A stretch of DNA of 33,312 nucleotides, from the NCBI GenBank assembly GCA_003245525.1, contig QKCY01000568.1, forward strand, positions 1 through 33,312. The letters run 5' to 3'. The position numbers and the translations under genes were made by a program. Shown here in pieces: positions 12,028 to 27,113 of the stretch. The DNA is from Victivallales bacterium. Lineage in GTDB: Bacteria; Verrucomicrobiota; Lentisphaeria; Oligosphaerales; Lenti-02. The notes below the pieces were generated by a model. That model was not told the origin of the DNA. It saw nothing but the letters and a program-made list of their open reading frames with translations, and did not search any database. Positions within the stretch are counted from its first letter, which is position 1. Every line of letters starts with the position of its first letter.

Positions 12028-13578
12028 CTACGTGTCGGTTCCCGGCAGGCGTTCGGCGGGCGGCCAGGAGGTGGGCTCCTGGTAGCTGGACTGGAGATGG
12101 CTCCAGTACCGGCGGCGCTTGTGGACGAGCTTCGTAGGGCTGTAGGGCTGCTGCCGGTCAAGCCGCCGGTCGTCCGCGAACTCCGTTTTCGGCTGGTAGT
12201 TCAGCGTGAAGGCCAGCAAGCGCTCGACCAGTTCCAGCCGGACGGTGGCATAGGCGGGATCGTCCCAGCGGTTGGCCACTTCGCCCGGATCGTCCCGGTG
12301 ATCGTATAGCTCGCCGCCTTCGGTGCCGCCGTAGTAGACCAGGCGGAAGTCCGCCGTGCGGATGGCCGAGACTTTGCGGTTCAGATGCCACCAGTCCCAT
12401 TCGGTGTAGGCGGCGTCGCGGTCAATCCGTTCCCCTGCCCCCACCGGGACCAGGGAGCGCCCTTCCCGGCCCTCGGGCAGCGGCACGTCGCACAGCTCGC
12501 ACAGGGTGGGATAGAAATCGACGGACTCGACGATGTCGTCGCAGGTTGTCCCCTGCGGTCCGCCGGGCCAACTGAGCAGGAAGGGAATCCGGCAGATCGA
12601 ATCGTACAGCCCGAAGTTCTTGTGGAAGAGGCCGTGGTCCCCGGAGAAGTCGCCGTGGTCGGCGGTGTAGAAGACGATGGTGTTCTCCAGCTCGCCCTCC
12701 TCGGCCAGCTTCTCGATGACCCGCCCGATCTCCTGGTCGATGCAGGTGATGAGCGCGTAGTAGCTGGCCAGACAGCGCCGCAGCCGGTCCGGATTGGGAT
12801 CGGCCAGCGGATAGCCGCAGCCCTTGGCCAGCATCCGGCGCATGAACTCCGGCTTGCCGGCAAAGCGGTTCTCGAAATAGTCGCGGGCGCTGTCCGGGAG
12901 CGTGAGCGAGGCGGGATCGTAGAGGTCGAAGAACTCCCGCGCGGGCGCGATCGGCGCGTGGGGCCGTTGGAAGCTCATATGGATGAAGAAGGGACGCCGC
13001 CGGTCGCGCTCCTCCAGGAAGGCCATGGTCTGGTCGCCGGTATAGTGCTCGATGGAATGCTCGTAGGGCAACTGGGCGGGGCCGCTCCCGTCGAGCGTGT
13101 ACTGCTGGCCGGGTTTCGGCGTGCCGTCCTCGTACCAGTCGGCCAAGCCCCGCTCGGCGAGGTAGGCGAAGTAGTGGCAGGTTGCCGGGTTGTCGCGGGT
13201 GGCATCGCACAGGTCGGTATAGCGCACCCGCTCGAACCCCTCGTCGTCCCAGCGGCGGATCATGTGGGCCTTGCCGAAGAGTCCCGTCTGGTAGCCATAG
13301 CGGCGGAAGAGGCAGGCCAGGCTGTTGGGCTCGGGCTCGGGCCACTCGGCGTGGTCGTTGCCGAACATCCCGTGGGTGTGCATATACTGCCCGGTCATGA
13401 AGCAGATCCGGGACGGGCTGCAGATCGGGTTGTTCGCGAAGGCCTGGCGGAAGCTGATCCCGCGGGCTGCGATCCGGTCGAGGTTCGGGGTCCGCACGTC
13501 GGGATGCCCGGCACACCCCATGGCACCGGCATGGTGCTGGTCGCTCATGAGCCAGAGAACGTTGGGTCGGCGCTGCAT
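12028..13578 (-). CDS. Sulfatase (type I, Cys-type formylglycine)
   Basis: A 516-residue arylsulfatase-family hydrolase that removes sulfate esters from a sugar or other substrate. The formylglycine motif CSPSR is at residues 53-57, within the usual CxPxR context, so a maturase must convert Cys53. Metal residues are visible at LMSDQHH (Asp13, Gln14) and at FYTADHGDFSGDHG. The ATG at 13578 has a perfect AAGGAGG ribosome-binding site, so the start is well supported. From this start there is no signal peptide, whereas many polysaccharide sulfatases are exported; this one may act in the cytoplasm on imported oligosaccharides. No anaerobic maturase (anSME) or FGE gene is in the window. The frame stays open upstream to 15381 inside the neighbour; this is not coding. 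Confidence 0.95.
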   Translation of the reverse strand: MQRRPNVLWLMSDQHHAGAMGCAGHPDVRTPNLDRIAARGISFRQAFANNPICSPSRICFMTGQYMHTHGMFGNDHAEWPEPEPNSLACLFRRYGYQTGLFGKAHMIRRWDDEGFERVRYTDLCDATRDNPATCHYFAYLAERGLADWYEDGTPKPGQQYTLDGSGPAQLPYEHSIEHYTGDQTMAFLEERDRRRPFFIHMSFQRPHAPIAPAREFFDLYDPASLTLPDSARDYFENRFAGKPEFMRRMLAKGCGYPLADPNPDRLRRCLASYYALITCIDQEIGRVIEKLAEEGELENTIVFYTADHGDFSGDHGLFHKNFGLYDSICRIPFLLSWPGGPQGTTCDDIVESVDFYPTLCELCDVPLPEGREGRSLVPVGAGERIDRDAAYTEWDWWHLNRKVSAIRTADFRLVYYGGTEGGELYDHRDDPGEVANRWDDPAYATVRLELVERLLAFTLNYQPKTEFADDRRLDRQQPYSPTKLVHKRRRYWSHLQSSYQEPTSWPPAERLPGTDT

Positions 13579-13582
13579 GGGG

Positions 13583-13589
13583 CCTCCTT
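13583..13589 (-). promoter_or_regulatory. Ribosome-binding site of the sulfatase gene
   Basis: AAGGAGG on the minus strand lies four bases before the ATG at 13578. It is the strongest Shine-Dalgarno seen in the window and fixes a start that gives no signal peptide. Confidence 0.8.
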
Positions 13590-13631
13590 GCGGGTGGAAG
13601 GCCCCACTATACCCGCCGGTCCGGCGAATGC

Positions 13632-16409
13632 CTATGCCGCCTCCCCGCTCTCCGCAGCGATGGCCTCGCCCTCCGCAGGTGGCCGAGGCCGACGACGGTG
13701 GGAGGCAAGGACCCGGATCAGCAGGTGGTGGATCAGGTGAATCCCCGCGAAGAAGATGAGCTGCACGAAACAGACCGTCAGGACGAACACCGGGTCCGAA
13801 AGATGCCGCTCCGACAGGGCGAAGTTCATCGAAGCCGTCGCGGCGAGCCAGGACAGCGTCATCGCGAGGGCGGCCGGCAGCGTCGGATGGCGCCAGCAGC
13901 GCGCCAGATCGCCGAACAGCCAGATGGCCCCCACTACCACGGGGCCGATCCAGTTCAACTGGTCGCCCACTTCGAGGATCCGTTCGGTGATCATGGTGTT
14001 CACCTCCAACGCGATCCAGGCCAGGGGCGAGACAATCCAGAGCACGGCGAGCCCGATGAAGAACAGGGAAGCGTGGCGACCGCTCACCAGATCCCCGCCG
14101 CCCATCACCCGGCGTCTCCGCAACAGAAAACCGACGGTCAGCATGGCGGCCAGATAGACGATGAGCGGACCCATATCGTGGAACACCTTCCCCCAGCTCA
14201 ACATGCCATCGTACCAGTCCGCGACGGTATTCACCCCGCCCAGGGCGAGGGCCAGACACCAGACGAAGAACACGGCGGACAACTGGCCGCTCAACTGGCT
14301 GCGGCGGGTGCCGATCACCGCCCGTTCGCGCCGCTGCTCGAACTCCAGGGCTTCGCGCCGCACATGGTCGGGCAGGAAGACTCCGGGCACATCCAGGAGA
14401 TGGTGCCAGGCCTCCCGGGCCGACCCCATCTCCCCGCGCTCCTCCAGTTCCCGCGCGAAGTTGTAGCGGGCGGCCACTTCGCTCTCCACGCACTCCGACA
14501 GGGTCCGCCGGGAGACGATGCCACCGTGGATCTCGCCCTCTTCCGTCCGTTCGAGCAGATCCGCGATCGCGTCCCAGTAGTTCTCCTTGAGGAGCGCCTG
14601 GACCGTACTCGTGATATTGCGTTCGATGGTCGCCATCACCGTGGCCATGCGGGTCTCGCACGCCACGTCGTCCGGGGACGGCGTGACCACCATGAGCTTC
14701 TTCGACAACCGGAAACCCGCCAGTTCGGCCCGGACCTGCAGGGCGTCGGTACGGGCTTCGGGATCGGCCAGCAGGTCCTCCGCCCGCCGCATCGCCGCAT
14801 GCCGCTCGTCGACCCGCCGGGTGCTGTCCTCCAGCAACTGGGCGCGCCGCTCTCCGAGAATGGCCCCGTTCCAGGGGCGCAGAGCCTCCAGAATGAGCCG
14901 GGCCCGGTCGAAGCACCGGGTCTGGTACGCGGTGTTGGCCTGGTAGATGCCATCGGCCAGCTCGGCCTGGTACCGGTCCAGCCGCCGGACCAGTTCGTCG
15001 GTGGCGGGCAATTCCTCGCCCATCTCGCCCAGCAACTGGACCGCTCCCTCGAAATTGGCCAAGTCCAGTTGGTCCTCGGACTCCTCCGCCATGCCGATCG
15101 CGGAATCCAGGGACATCTTCCGTTCGGCTTCCAGCGCGCGGACCTGCTCGTCGGGGAGGACGGACAGGTCCATGGTCGAGTACTCCTTCAGAGCGTTGCG
15201 CACGCCCTTCCAGTCCACGCTCGCCAGCGAGTGGCGCAGACGTTTGAGGAGGGTCTCGCCGTATTCGCGGGCGGCCTGGCGGTTGGCCTTCATGTTGGCC
15301 CCGCAGAAGGAGCAGAAGGTGGTGTCCAGATGCACTCCCTGTCCGCAGGCGGGACAGGGCTCCATGCCATAGGCACCGCACTCGCGGCAGTATTTGCCCT
15401 TCATCGAATTGAGGGTCTGGCAGGTCGGGCAGCGCCAGCGTTCCCCGTCGGGGGTCGGCTCCCCGGACGGGCTGGCTTCGGCGCGACCGCCGGCCGGCGT
15501 CAGCGCGGCGACCACTTCGCTGCCCGTCTTGAAGCGTTCTTCGGGATCGCGCATCAGCATGCGCTGGATGACCCGGGCCATCTCCTCCGGGAAATCGGGA
15601 ACCAGATCGCGGGGGGACGGGGCCTGGCGGTAGAGGTAGTCGGCCGAGGAGGAATCCTCGTCCACCCCGGCGAAGGGCGGTGCCCCGGTCGCCATGCGGA
15701 ACAGCAAGACGCCCAGCGCGTAGAGGGAGGCGCGGACATCGCGCGGCTGCCCCAGCACCAATTCGGGAGCCACCAACCCGCCCGGGGCAGCGTCTTCCTC
15801 CTCGGCGCCAGGATCAAGAAAGGTGCCGACCGGTTCACCGGCGCGGATCAGCCGCACCTGGTCGCCAGCGAGCAGCACATCCTCCGGCGACAGGCCATCG
15901 GCCAGCAACTGGCCTTGGTCCCAGGCCATCTGTAGCGCGGCGGCCAGCGACCGCCCGCAGCTGGCCACCTCCTTGGAACCCATCCGCCCCACCCGGGCCA
16001 GACGGGCGGCCACGCTCTCCCCCTCGACCAGCTCCGTACTGCGGAAGTACAGCCCCCCCTCCTCGCCGATGGCGTAGAGATGCACGAAGGCGGGGTGGTG
16101 CATGCCGGCCAGCCGCCGTGCCTGCGCGACGAAGTGCCGCACCAGCACCTTGTCGGACATGAGATGGGGCGAAAGAATCTTGAGCGCCACCTCCCGGCCC
16201 AGGCTGGTCTGGTGGGCCCGGTACAGGGGACCGGTCTCGCCCTGCGCGATCTCATCGCCGATGACGAAGTCGCTCAAGGACAGTGCCGAGGAGAGCGGCG
16301 GCGGCGGCGTCTCGACCCGACGGCGACAGTATCCGCAGACGAACGGACGCCCACGCATGGTATCGGGCAGAGTCACTATCGAGCTGCAAATGGGACAGAT
16401 AACGTTCAC
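13632..16409 (-). CDS. Polytopic membrane protein with zinc ribbons and a degenerate Ser/Thr protein kinase domain (probable pseudokinase)
   Basis: About 925 residues. Domains in order: a CxxC/CxxC zinc ribbon (residues 5-28); a kinase-like fold (about 48-305); a double zinc ribbon (about 326-371, CPTC/CREC and CPAC/CSFC); a long helical, perhaps TPR-like region (about 375-690); and about six membrane segments near the C terminus, ending in a basic and acidic tail. In the kinase domain the VALK lysine (Lys77) and APE motif remain, but the HRDxKxxN loop reads LLADGLSPEDVLL, the DFG motif reads LIRAGEP, the helix-C Glu is replaced by Gln, and the helix-F Asp by Ser. It therefore probably cannot phosphorylate and may act as a scaffold or sensor. 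I favour the GTG at 16409 because GGCGGG sits six bases upstream; a TTG at 16415 is possible. It lies 53 bp downstream of nothing on its own strand and upstream of the sulfatase. Confidence 0.85.
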   Translation of the reverse strand: MNVICPICSSIVTLPDTMRGRPFVCGYCRRRVETPPPPLSSALSLSDFVIGDEIAQGETGPLYRAHQTSLGREVALKILSPHLMSDKVLVRHFVAQARRLAGMHHPAFVHLYAIGEEGGLYFRSTELVEGESVAARLARVGRMGSKEVASCGRSLAAALQMAWDQGQLLADGLSPEDVLLAGDQVRLIRAGEPVGTFLDPGAEEEDAAPGGLVAPELVLGQPRDVRASLYALGVLLFRMATGAPPFAGVDEDSSSADYLYRQAPSPRDLVPDFPEEMARVIQRMLMRDPEERFKTGSEVVAALTPAGGRAEASPSGEPTPDGERWRCPTCQTLNSMKGKYCRECGAYGMEPCPACGQGVHLDTTFCSFCGANMKANRQAAREYGETLLKRLRHSLASVDWKGVRNALKEYSTMDLSVLPDEQVRALEAERKMSLDSAIGMAEESEDQLDLANFEGAVQLLGEMGEELPATDELVRRLDRYQAELADGIYQANTAYQTRCFDRARLILEALRPWNGAILGERRAQLLEDSTRRVDERHAAMRRAEDLLADPEARTDALQVRAELAGFRLSKKLMVVTPSPDDVACETRMATVMATIERNITSTVQALLKENYWDAIADLLERTEEGEIHGGIVSRRTLSECVESEVAARYNFARELEERGEMGSAREAWHHLLDVPGVFLPDHVRREALEFEQRRERAVIGTRRSQLSGQLSAVFFVWCLALALGGVNTVADWYDGMLSWGKVFHDMGPLIVYLAAMLTVGFLLRRRRVMGGGDLVSGRHASLFFIGLAVLWIVSPLAWIALEVNTMITERILEVGDQLNWIGPVVVGAIWLFGDLARCWRHPTLPAALAMTLSWLAATASMNFALSERHLSDPVFVLTVCFVQLIFFAGIHLIHHLLIRVLASHRRRPRPPAEGEAIAAESGEAA

Positions 16410-16586: not shown

Positions 16587-16665
16587 CAAACGGCCCCCTT
16601 GCATGAATCGCCCTCGCGGGGTTACCGTAGTGCATTCCTGTCGCAGGCAGTTACGGAGACATCCC

Positions 16666-18111
16666 ATGGGTTCCGCCATCCCGACCGAGCGGCTCTACGC
16701 CCAACGCCTCACCCGCTACCTGACCGCGTTGCGGAACGAGAAGCCCGACCGCATCCCGGTCCGGCCCTTCGTGGCGGAATTCGCCGGCAAGTACGCCGGA
16801 TTCACGAACCAGGAGGTGACGCACGACTACCGCAAGGCCTTCGCGGCGGTCTGCCGTTGCGCCGCCGACTTCGACTGGGACGCGATGGTCGCCAACATGG
16901 TCTACGTCTGGACCGGGCTGACCCAGGCCATCGGCTTGCGCTACTATGGCATTCCCGGGATCGAGGTCCCCGCCGAATCGGGCTTCCAGTACCTGGAGCC
17001 GCCCGAGAGCGAGGCCTTCATGCGGGAGGACGAGTACGACGCCCTGATCGAGGACCCCACCTCCTTCCTCTACAACGTCTGGCTGCCCCGCGTCGCCCGC
17101 GACGTGCCGGCTCCCGGCCAGCCCGCCTCCTACCGCGGCCATCTGGCTCTGGTCAAGGGCGGCATGGCCATGCTGGACTACTTCACCGCCTTCGGCCCCC
17201 AGTGCGCCCGCCTCCGCCACGAGTTCGGCATGCCCGGCGCCATCGCCGGCATCCTCAAGGCACCGCTCGATATCATGGCCGACAAGCTCCGCGGCTACGT
17301 GGGCCTGACCATGGACCTCATGACCCAGCCCGACAAGGTCCGCCGCGCCTGCGAGGCCCTGGCCCCCCACCTTTGCCACGTGGCCAGCTGCACCGCCGAC
17401 CCGGCCCGCCAGTTGCCAATCGGCTTCTGGATGCACCGGGGCTGCGTGCCCTTCGTCACGCCCCAACAATTCGACACCATCTACTGGCCCACCCTCAAGC
17501 CCATCATCCTGGAGCTCTGGCGGCAGGGACACCAGACTCTCTTCTATGCCGAAGGCAACTGGAACCACCATCTCGGTGCCTTCGCCGAGTTGCCGGAGAA
17601 GTCCATCGTCTACCATGTGGACCACGCCGACATCTTCGCAGTGCATCGCCGTCTCGGCGACCGCTTCTGCCTCAGCGGCGGCATTCCCAACACCCTCCTG
17701 TGGAATGGGTCGCCGGAGGATGTCCGCGCCTATGCCAAACGGGTCATCGACGGTGTGGCGGCCGACGGCGGCTACATCATGGACGCCTCGGCGATCATGC
17801 AGAACGACACCAGCATCGAGAACCTCCAGGCCCTCACCGACTTCACCCACGAATACGGTACCTATTCCTCCACCGACGCCATGCCGTTGCGGGATGTGGA
17901 TGCGCCGACCTTCGCCCCCGAGGAGTACCGGAACCCCGGCGCGCCTCCCGCCTGCACGACCCGGAATCCGCCCGGTGTCTGTCTGCCCTGGGACGAGATC
18001 AGGCGCGATCTGCCGCCCGTCACCGGAGACACCGATCTGCTGCGGGAGATATGGGGCAACGTGGACGGGTTGGGCAATATGTTCATCTGGCAATGCCTGC
18101 TGTCATTCTAG
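16666..18111 (+). CDS. Uroporphyrinogen decarboxylase-like (URO-D superfamily) protein
   Basis: A 481-residue protein of the URO-D/cobalamin-independent methyltransferase-like superfamily. Features include RIPVRPFVAEFAGKYAGF near the N terminus, a DFDWDAMVANMVYVW segment, LTMDLMTQPDKVRRACEAL in the middle, and a C-terminal FCLSGGIPNTLLWNGSPEDV barrel strand, which is the family's glycine-rich motif. It is about 130 residues longer than true HemE, and the usual zinc/corrinoid-type HxCG(N) motif reads FYAEGNWNHH. It is therefore probably not the haem enzyme and more likely one of the many uncharacterised paralogues, some of which work in methyl transfer. The ATG at 16666 has GGAG seven bases upstream. 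A stem-loop follows the stop codon. Confidence 0.8.
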   Translation: MGSAIPTERLYAQRLTRYLTALRNEKPDRIPVRPFVAEFAGKYAGFTNQEVTHDYRKAFAAVCRCAADFDWDAMVANMVYVWTGLTQAIGLRYYGIPGIEVPAESGFQYLEPPESEAFMREDEYDALIEDPTSFLYNVWLPRVARDVPAPGQPASYRGHLALVKGGMAMLDYFTAFGPQCARLRHEFGMPGAIAGILKAPLDIMADKLRGYVGLTMDLMTQPDKVRRACEALAPHLCHVASCTADPARQLPIGFWMHRGCVPFVTPQQFDTIYWPTLKPIILELWRQGHQTLFYAEGNWNHHLGAFAELPEKSIVYHVDHADIFAVHRRLGDRFCLSGGIPNTLLWNGSPEDVRAYAKRVIDGVAADGGYIMDASAIMQNDTSIENLQALTDFTHEYGTYSSTDAMPLRDVDAPTFAPEEYRNPGAPPACTTRNPPGVCLPWDEIRRDLPPVTGDTDLLREIWGNVDGLGNMFIWQCLLSF

Positions 18112-24791: not shown

Positions 24792-26924
24792 CTACTTCGG
24801 AGACCGGACCGCCCGGACATAGAGGACGTCGTTTTTCTGGCGCAGGACCGTACGGACGGCCCTCATGTCGACCGCGAGGGCCTGGTTCACGTCCGTGTCC
24901 GGCACGCCGCTCCAATAGATCTGGCCCAGGCTGTTGGGGAACGCGCGGTCATGCTCCTTCTGCCCGAGTTGGGCGATCAGCCGGAGCTCCTCCTCGTCGG
25001 GCAGACGCCAGTCCTGGAAACCCGCGAAGACCAGCGCGTCGGCCCAGCGGAACGCCTCGTGCCAGTTCACCTGGCGTCCCCCCATACAGCCCTCGCCCTT
25101 GCCATCGCTAGCCCACATGAGCCCAGCCAGGTTGTCGGTGACCGTGCCCGGCTTGTCGAAGGTGAACCGCTCGGCAGGGATGAGCAGGTCCAGTTTCTTG
25201 AGGGCGGGAATGGCCGCCCGGTAGTTCTGTTCCTTGATCAGGGCCACCGAACGGCGGCTGTAAAGCTCGATCTCGGCTCTGTTGGCCGGGCGGAAACGCT
25301 CGATTCCGAGGGCAAAGTCCTTGGCCCGGGCGCCGCAGCTCTGCGCCAAGTCCAGCGCCTCGCGCCTCAGCGCCTCCATATCCTTCAGCGCCTTCTCCAG
25401 AAGCGTGGTCCACTCGCGGTACTTGGCCACGGCGTTCGTCACATCGCCCCGTTCCTCGGCGCGCTGGGCTTCCCGCATCACGGTGAAGATGGCATCGTAC
25501 TGCTTGTCCGGCAGGTTGACCTGGAGCAGGCCGGCCAGGGGGTTGGCCCGCAGGGCCGCGAGCTTGTCCTGGACCTCGGTGAGCCCGGCCAGCATGTTGG
25601 TCTTCTGGGCGACGATGGCATCCACCACTTCCTTCAGGCCATTGGCCCGGCCCAGGAGGGACACGATGTCGTCGCCGCGGCCGACCGCCTGCTTCATCTC
25701 GTTGAAGGTGACCACGACCTTGTCCCAGCCTTCCTTCAGATTCGCCTCGTAGAAGGTCACGTCGGCCTCGGCCGCATGGAATGCCATCTCGGCCTCCTGC
25801 ATGCGCTGCTGGAGTGTGGTGCGGGCCTTGGTGATCTGTTCGAGCATCTCGTTCACTTTGGCGACGCCCTGGTCGGCACCCTCTTTGACGGCCACGTATT
25901 GGAAGTCGGCGGAGGCCTGATTCAGCGCCTCGCGTTCCTTGGTCAACTCCTGCCACGCGATCTGGGCGTCGCGCGGCGCGCCCTGGTTCTTGGCCTCCGC
26001 CAAGGCCTTGTCGAAGGCGGCGACGGCAGTGATGGCTTCGGTCTTGGCCGTGCGCAGCTTGCCGATGGCCTTGGGCAACTCGGCCTTGGCACCCAGGTAG
26101 AGGCTGGTCGCCTCCTGCCAGTCCCGACGCTTGATGGCGTCCTTGGCAGCGGCCAGCTTCCCGGCCAGCACCTTGGCGTCCTCCGGGAACGCCTTCGCGT
26201 ACTCGTCCTGGCTGAATACGCTGCTCTGTTCCGTGAAGGCCGCCATTTCCTGGCGCAGCACCGTGATCTTCGGGAAATCGATGGACAGACCATCCAGGAG
26301 GTCCACCCCGCGACGATAGCCAGCCACCGCTTCCTCGCTACTGACGTCTTCCGCGGTCGCCTTGGCCCGGGCCTGTTCCACTCCGGCCCACAGGTCGGGC
26401 AACAGCTCGCCGATCCCGAGTTTCGTCGCCCGCTCATAGAGCGATTCGAAGTTGTTGCGGACGAAATCCACCTTCGAGGCGGCGTCACGCGCCTTCACCA
26501 GGGCACCGACCAGCAACTCGTCGGCCTGCCGGTACAGCTTCGCGACGGCGCGCGCCCCGCCTTTGCCCGCCTCGGCCTGCTTCTGCAGGCTGAGCACCCG
26601 CTGCCAGTCGCCGGCAGCATAGAGAGAGAGGATGGCGACATCGCTCTTGGCCTTCTCCATGCTCTCCTCGAAGGGCACCCGGGCGTTGTCCACCACGGTG
26701 CCGGCCCAGACTCGGTAGCCAATGAAGACGACCAGTCCCAGCAGGAGCACCCCCCCCAGCACCACCGGCAACAGCCAGCGCGGCCCCGGTCCGCGCATCT
26801 CGCGCTCGATGCGGGCCAGTTCCTTCTTCTGTCGCCTGGCCTCTTCGCGTTCGGCCCGGCGTTCGGCCCGAAGACGTTCGGCTTCGGACTGTTCCAATGG
26901 TTCTTGCGGTGCTTTGACGGGCAT
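24792..26924 (-). CDS. Membrane-anchored coiled-coil protein with C-terminal DUF1566 domain
   Basis: A 710-residue protein. The N terminus is a very charged helix (residues 11-45, rich in Glu, Arg and Lys), then one membrane segment at about 50-73 (WLLPVVLGGVLLLGLVVFIGY), then about 500 residues of mainly helical, coiled-coil-prone sequence, and a C-terminal DUF1566 (Lcl C-terminal) domain with TDNLAGLMWASDGKGEG, WHEAFRWADAL and FQDWRLPDEEELRLI. DUF1566 domains are usually exported and thought to bind something at the cell surface, but their function is unknown. The ATG at 26924 has GAGGACC upstream. The promoter at 27031-27059 lies ahead. It may be a scaffold that reaches across the periplasm. 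Confidence 0.8.
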   Translation of the reverse strand: MPVKAPQEPLEQSEAERLRAERRAEREEARRQKKELARIEREMRGPGPRWLLPVVLGGVLLLGLVVFIGYRVWAGTVVDNARVPFEESMEKAKSDVAILSLYAAGDWQRVLSLQKQAEAGKGGARAVAKLYRQADELLVGALVKARDAASKVDFVRNNFESLYERATKLGIGELLPDLWAGVEQARAKATAEDVSSEEAVAGYRRGVDLLDGLSIDFPKITVLRQEMAAFTEQSSVFSQDEYAKAFPEDAKVLAGKLAAAKDAIKRRDWQEATSLYLGAKAELPKAIGKLRTAKTEAITAVAAFDKALAEAKNQGAPRDAQIAWQELTKEREALNQASADFQYVAVKEGADQGVAKVNEMLEQITKARTTLQQRMQEAEMAFHAAEADVTFYEANLKEGWDKVVVTFNEMKQAVGRGDDIVSLLGRANGLKEVVDAIVAQKTNMLAGLTEVQDKLAALRANPLAGLLQVNLPDKQYDAIFTVMREAQRAEERGDVTNAVAKYREWTTLLEKALKDMEALRREALDLAQSCGARAKDFALGIERFRPANRAEIELYSRRSVALIKEQNYRAAIPALKKLDLLIPAERFTFDKPGTVTDNLAGLMWASDGKGEGCMGGRQVNWHEAFRWADALVFAGFQDWRLPDEEELRLIAQLGQKEHDRAFPNSLGQIYWSGVPDTDVNQALAVDMRAVRTVLRQKNDVLYVRAVRSPK

Positions 26925-27030
26925 CTGGGCTGGTCCTCGGGGTGATGTCCTGGACGACGCAACGGGAGACCGGTCCGGACACGTTCCGCCGGAACAATGC
27001 TCCTTTGGCCGGATATCGCCGCCCTGCTCT

Positions 27031-27059
27031 ACTATACGGGCAGGCAGACAGGATGACAA
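27031..27059 (-). promoter_or_regulatory. Near-consensus sigma-70 promoter of the DUF1566 gene
   Basis: On the minus strand TTGTCA (27059-27054) and TATAGT (27036-27031) are spaced by 17 bp; each box differs from consensus by one base. It is the best promoter match seen in the window. The leader to the ATG at 26924 is about 100 nt. Confidence 0.6.
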
Positions 27060-27084
27060 CGTGTTGCCCCCGGTCACTGGCCGA

Positions 27085-27113
27085 TTGGCGAAAGGGCAAG
27101 GCATGGCTAGCGT
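27085..27113 (+). promoter_or_regulatory. Weak candidate promoter of the toroid protein
   Basis: TTGGCG (27085-27090) and TAGCGT (27108-27113), spaced by 17 bp, lie 35 bp before the ATG at 27149, divergent from the DUF1566 promoter. The -10 match is poor. Confidence 0.25.

What the first reader, a model, noticed from the sequence alone, without database searches (positions are those of the whole stretch)
13632..16409. Large zinc-ribbon membrane protein with a catalytically dead Ser/Thr kinase domain
The kinase-like domain keeps the VALK lysine and APE, but the HRDxKxxN loop reads LLADGLSPEDVLL, DFG reads LIRAGEP, the helix-C Glu is Gln and the helix-F Asp is Ser. It is flanked by an N-terminal zinc ribbon and a double zinc ribbon, then a long helical region and about six C-terminal membrane segments. 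I know of no characterised bacterial protein with this order of domains. It may be a scaffold or ligand sensor in a signalling or membrane complex.
Basis: partly seen in the sequence, partly recalled or inferred. Interest (0 to 1): 0.7.

Follow-up and report, generated by a model that had tools for sequence, protein, structure and literature searches.

The report
Membrane-anchored dead kinase in Lentisphaeria
This gene encodes a large membrane protein whose protein-kinase domain has lost nearly all of the residues needed to transfer phosphate, although most relatives with the same layout still look active, so it appears to be a former signalling enzyme kept for a structural or regulatory job.

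Summary
The catalytic residues are gone: His-x-Asp reads Ala-Asp-Gly, Lys is Ser, Asn is Asp, DFG is RAG, the helix-C Glu is Gln and the helix-F Asp is Ser. The beta-3 Lys, two loop glycines and APE remain. In 39 relatives these positions are nearly invariant. A second species of the genus shares the loss at 66% identity, and the kinase domain is under purifying selection (dN/dS about 0.22), so this is neither an assembly error nor a decaying gene. The domain order is not unique: it defines a family found here only in the class Lentisphaeria, whose members mostly keep an active-looking kinase. Activity was lost on the stem of this genus and again in a paralogue of a sister genus (partial gene). 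Most likely it is a membrane-anchored, non-phosphorylating scaffold or regulatory pseudokinase, working like EssB/YukC or MviN but belonging to neither family. In three relatives an active member precedes an NfeD gene. Function is inferred.

The parts
13632..16409 (-). whole gene: 925-aa zinc-ribbon / pseudokinase / double zinc ribbon / helical / membrane protein
   Evidence: ORF with GTG start behind AGGCGGG, conserved in the same-genus orthologue; full-length relatives
16326..16397 (-). N-terminal zinc ribbon, C5/C8/C25/C28
   Evidence: CxxC-x16-CxxC shared by most relatives
15501..16274 (-). Hanks-type kinase fold, residues 46-303
   Evidence: Pfam Pkinase E 3.1e-16; AlphaFold pLDDT 88.9, pTM 0.85; PknA/PknB best in PDB
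16179..16181 (-). beta-3 lysine K77, retained
16122..16124 (-). helix-C Glu position: Gln96 (Arg in G001)
15873..15908 (-). degenerate catalytic loop LLADGLSPEDVL (residues 168-179)
   Evidence: LLADGLRPEDVL in G001
15837..15845 (-). DFG position: Arg-Ala-Gly (residues 189-191)
15726..15728 (-). helix-F Asp position: Ser228
15300..15431 (-). double zinc ribbon (DZR), residues 327-370
   Evidence: Pfam PF12773 E 3.1e-7; cysteines invariant in the family
14394..15293 (-). six long-short helical hairpins, about 50 aa each, residues 373-672
   Evidence: AlphaFold model m4a2b7436dbdf; no confident PDB match
13695..14342 (-). C-terminal membrane region, about six helices, residues 690-905
   Evidence: model; hydropathy finds 4 segments here and 4-6 in most relatives

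Best explanation
A membrane-anchored pseudokinase derived from an active Lentisphaeria kinase. The kinase fold is kept but transfers no phosphate. The protein most likely works as a scaffold or regulatory subunit: the membrane domain places it in the inner membrane, the zinc ribbons, pseudokinase and helical hairpins face the cytoplasm, and the pseudokinase binds a partner protein, perhaps one of the genome's active kinases or their substrates. Shown here: predicted fold, loss of catalytic residues, descent from active-type kinases, selective maintenance. Inferred: topology, lack of activity in a test tube, scaffold role, partner.
For: Catalytic and metal-binding residues are lost in both species of the genus while near-invariant in 39 relatives. 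The lost state is conserved at 66% protein identity; kinase-domain dN/dS is 0.22, as low as in the rest of the protein, and the catalytic loop (12/15) and the APE-helix F stretch (28/34) are identical above the domain mean. The kinase fold is predicted with confidence. The tree nests the pseudokinases inside active members and forces at least two losses. This is the only full-length member of the family found in either genome of the genus, so the protein is kept without catalysis. Other kinases in the genome are mostly intact. Precedent: EssB/YukC and MviN are membrane pseudokinases, EssB/YukC with a scaffold and recruitment role (PMC12599244).
Against: No partner or operon is conserved: only a divergent URO-D-like gene is shared with G001. 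K77 and two P-loop glycines are retained, so nucleotide binding is not excluded. Pseudokinases can gain other chemistry (SidJ, SelO). Both genomes are incomplete (about 88% and 92%), so a second, active copy could be missing. dS is near 1, so dN/dS is approximate, and it rests on two sequences.
Confidence: 0.68

Rival explanations
1. Ligand or nucleotide sensor: the pseudo-active site still binds ATP without metal, or another small molecule, and signals by a shape change to the membrane domain.
For: K77, G57 and G60 are kept, and the catalytic-loop region is better conserved than the domain mean in the two species.
Against: DFG Asp, catalytic-loop Asn and helix-C Glu are all lost; the comparison rests on two sequences; the MviN pseudokinase domain, also degraded, binds neither ATP nor Mg (PMC12599244).
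Confidence: 0.15
2. Allosteric partner of an active kinase: it forms a mixed dimer with a zinc-ribbon kinase of the same genome (such as G000:C502) and switches it on or off, or is its substrate.
For: G000 and G001 each keep an intact zinc-ribbon kinase related to it; PknB-type kinases are known to work as dimers (general knowledge).
Against: No synteny or co-occurrence signal was found; untested.
Confidence: 0.1
3. A different enzyme: the fold catalyses another transfer, as in SelO (AMPylation) or SidJ (glutamylation).
For: Known for other pseudokinases (PMC12599244).
Against: SelO and SidJ keep a metal-binding Asp at the DFG position that is lost here (table).
Confidence: 0.03
4. Relic: the kinase domain is drifting and only the remainder of the protein matters.
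For: Catalysis is lost; the activation loop diverges freely (4/17 identical).
Against: dN/dS 0.22, 70% identity (above the membrane domain's 57%), open frame and confident fold.
Confidence: 0.04

Closest known systems
Full-length zinc-ribbon/kinase/DZR/helical/membrane proteins of Lentisphaeria (G010, G016, G020, G022, G053, G002a/b; uncharacterised)
   Same: same domain order, alignable over the full length at 24-31% identity
   Different: HxD, Lys, Asn, DFG Asp and helix-F Asp intact, so presumably active kinases
EssB/YukC of type VII secretion (Firmicutes)
   Same: membrane pseudokinase with all three motifs degraded and a shortened activation loop; scaffold role (PMC12599244)
   Different: single membrane span and no zinc ribbons (partly general knowledge); no type VII secretion genes seen in the window; not among the listed PDB sequence or fold matches
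MviN / ActPs3 pseudokinases of Actinobacteria
   Same: pseudokinase joined to a multi-span membrane protein; deletion in the activation loop (PMC12599244)
   Different: membrane flippase part comes before the kinase; VALT in place of the VALK kept here; no zinc ribbons (general knowledge)
PknA/PknB Hanks-type kinases
   Same: same fold, nearest in sequence (E 4e-22) and structure
   Different: active enzymes with all catalytic residues and other sensor domains

Membership tests
Hanks-type kinase fold (Pkinase, PF00069) | profile match above the curated cut-off | tested here: met
   60 bits against a cut-off of 31.7; active relatives score about 160
Hanks-type kinase fold (Pkinase, PF00069) | two-lobed kinase structure | tested here: met
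   predicted model and PDB matches
Active Ser/Thr kinase | HxD Asp, catalytic-loop Asn, DFG Asp, helix-C Glu | tested here: not met
   G172, D177, R189, Q96
Bacterial pseudokinase | kinase fold lacking one or more of the K/D/D residues | tested here: met
   K kept, both Asp lost; maintained with dN/dS 0.22
Bacterial pseudokinase | no phosphotransfer in vitro | not testable with these tools
   needs purified protein
Lentisphaeria ZnR-kinase-DZR-helical-membrane family | homology outside the kinase domain over the full length | tested here: met
   E down to 2e-135 outside the genus; C-terminal profile
EssB/YukC | family sequence match and type VII secretion genes nearby | tested here: not met
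   no such Pfam or NCBIfam match for the protein; none in Pfam scans of window neighbours
MviN/ActPs3 | MurJ/MviN flippase domain before the kinase | tested here: not met
   a zinc ribbon precedes the kinase; no such Pfam or NCBIfam match

The most novel reading that the evidence does not exclude
A membrane-kinase family of Lentisphaeria whose core job does not need phosphotransfer: catalysis was discarded at least twice while the membrane and helical parts were kept, perhaps for organising membrane protein quality control together with NfeD, next to which active members lie in three relatives.
Probability: 0.25. Interest if true: 0.55.

Novelty: new variant of a known kind. Interest (0 to 1): 0.4.

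Why it matters
Membrane pseudokinases are known in bacteria but few have a traced origin. Here the dead forms nest among active-looking relatives with the same layout, with at least two separate losses, so what the fold does without catalysis can be asked by comparing natural relatives. It also adds a pseudokinase architecture from a group not mentioned in the 2025 review of bacterial pseudokinase families (PMC12599244).

Tried and rejected
Assembly or frameshift artefact: rejected, a second species has the same loss. Misaligned motifs: rejected, the catalytic loop aligns without gaps to the relatives. Operon partner: the sulfatase downstream (starts at 13578) has no counterpart beside the G001 copy; only the divergent URO-D-like gene is shared. 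The single-protein scan of named genomes found nothing; the C-terminal profile named the lineage. Fold search of the C-terminal half gave no match at E <= 0.001. Literature searches turned up no characterised zinc-ribbon kinase of this group.

Full report
Observation. The gene at 13632-16409 (-) has a GTG start behind AGGCGGG; the start codon is conserved in the same-genus orthologue. It encodes 925 aa. Pfam finds Pkinase at 50-294 (60 bits) and a double zinc ribbon at 327-370. An N-terminal CxxC...CxxC ribbon is shared by most relatives. AlphaFold gives a confident kinase fold (pLDDT 88.9, pTM 0.85) whose nearest solved structures are PknA and PknB. The C-terminal half is modelled as six long-short helical hairpins followed by about six membrane helices (pLDDT 84.8, pTM 0.59), without a confident match in the PDB.

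Where it comes from. Named relatives found with the C-terminal profile are mostly Lentisphaeria/Victivallales metagenome-assembled genomes. Long matches to the C-terminal part were found in 13 genomes of the class (G000, G001, G002, G003, G010, G016, G020, G022, G053, G058, G060, G061, G062). Among 388 genomes drawn from the phylum, listed matches outside the class covered no more than about the first quarter of the profile.

Loss of catalysis. In 39 other kinases of the class, His170, Asn177, DFG Asp189 and helix-F Asp228 are invariant, and the catalytic Asp172, Lys174 and helix-C Glu96 are present in 37-38. Here those seven positions read A170, D177, R189, S228, G172, S174 and Q96; the same-genus G001 has the same residues except R174 and R96. 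K77, G57, G60, the DFG Gly and APE stay. The segment before APE is three residues shorter than in the active family members. Pfam scores fall from about 160 bits in active members to about 60.

It is maintained. G000 and G001 share 66% of residues overall and 70% in the kinase domain. dN/dS is about 0.22 for the kinase, 0.15 for the DZR, 0.25 for the helical part and 0.45 for the membrane part (NG86). The catalytic loop (12/15) and the APE-helix F stretch (28/34) are more conserved than the domain as a whole (179/258), the activation loop much less (4/17). These are small counts from two sequences.

How it arose. A tree of the C-terminal part, which leaves the kinase out, nests G000+G001 (100/100) among active members; a paralogue in the sister genus, G002c, also lacks the catalytic residues (HGAIEPAH, GFS) while its sisters G002a and G002b keep them. 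At least two losses are forced by well-supported branches. G002c is cut at its 5' side by the contig end, so its N-lobe was not seen.

Wider kinome. Of the kinases fetched from G000, G001 and G002, nearly all keep both motifs. G000 has further divergent or dead kinase domains: C67 (HRH), C12 (HGN, GLG) and a tandem pair in C553 whose counterpart is also present in G001.

Context. Only the divergent URO-D-like gene is shared with G001. In a sister subfamily the active kinase is directly followed by an NfeD gene in G053, G058 and G061; in this genome the NfeD hits lie on other contigs. NfeD and flotillin are studied together in bacterial membrane microdomains (e.g. PMC11222466, title and abstract only). 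This is a lead, not evidence for the window protein.

Mechanism. The best-supported account is a membrane-anchored pseudokinase scaffold or regulatory subunit. EssB/YukC and MviN are working analogies (PMC12599244); membership in either family was tested by domain content and not met. Topology, partner and the absence of activity are inferred.

Noticed in passing
L102:7439-11880, L103:5921-10477, L105:3455-7787: In three relatives an active kinase of the sister subfamily is followed on the same strand by an NfeD1b-type membrane protein gene (Pfam in G053 and G061, homologous in G058); a possible link of the family to membrane microdomains.
   Followed up: partly
L142 (G000:C553:8000-18391) and L148 (G001:C382): A pair of large proteins with very divergent kinase-like N-termini, present in both species of the genus; possibly further pseudokinases.
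   Followed up: partly
L146 (G000:C67) and L145 (G000:C12): Two more kinase domains with altered catalytic loops (HRH; HGN with GLG) in the same genome.
   Followed up: no
window 13578-13605: Inverted repeat GGGGCCTTCC...GGAGGCCCC around the ribosome-binding site of the downstream sulfatase; could be a terminator-like or RBS-hiding hairpin.
   Followed up: no
window 24792-27104 (-): 770-aa protein with a membrane helix, a long helical region and a C-terminal Lcl_C domain, another large membrane-helical architecture.
   Followed up: no
window 16603-18111 (+): URO-D/methylcobamide methyltransferase-like gene, 86% identical in G001 and divergently placed to the pseudokinase gene in both.
   Followed up: no
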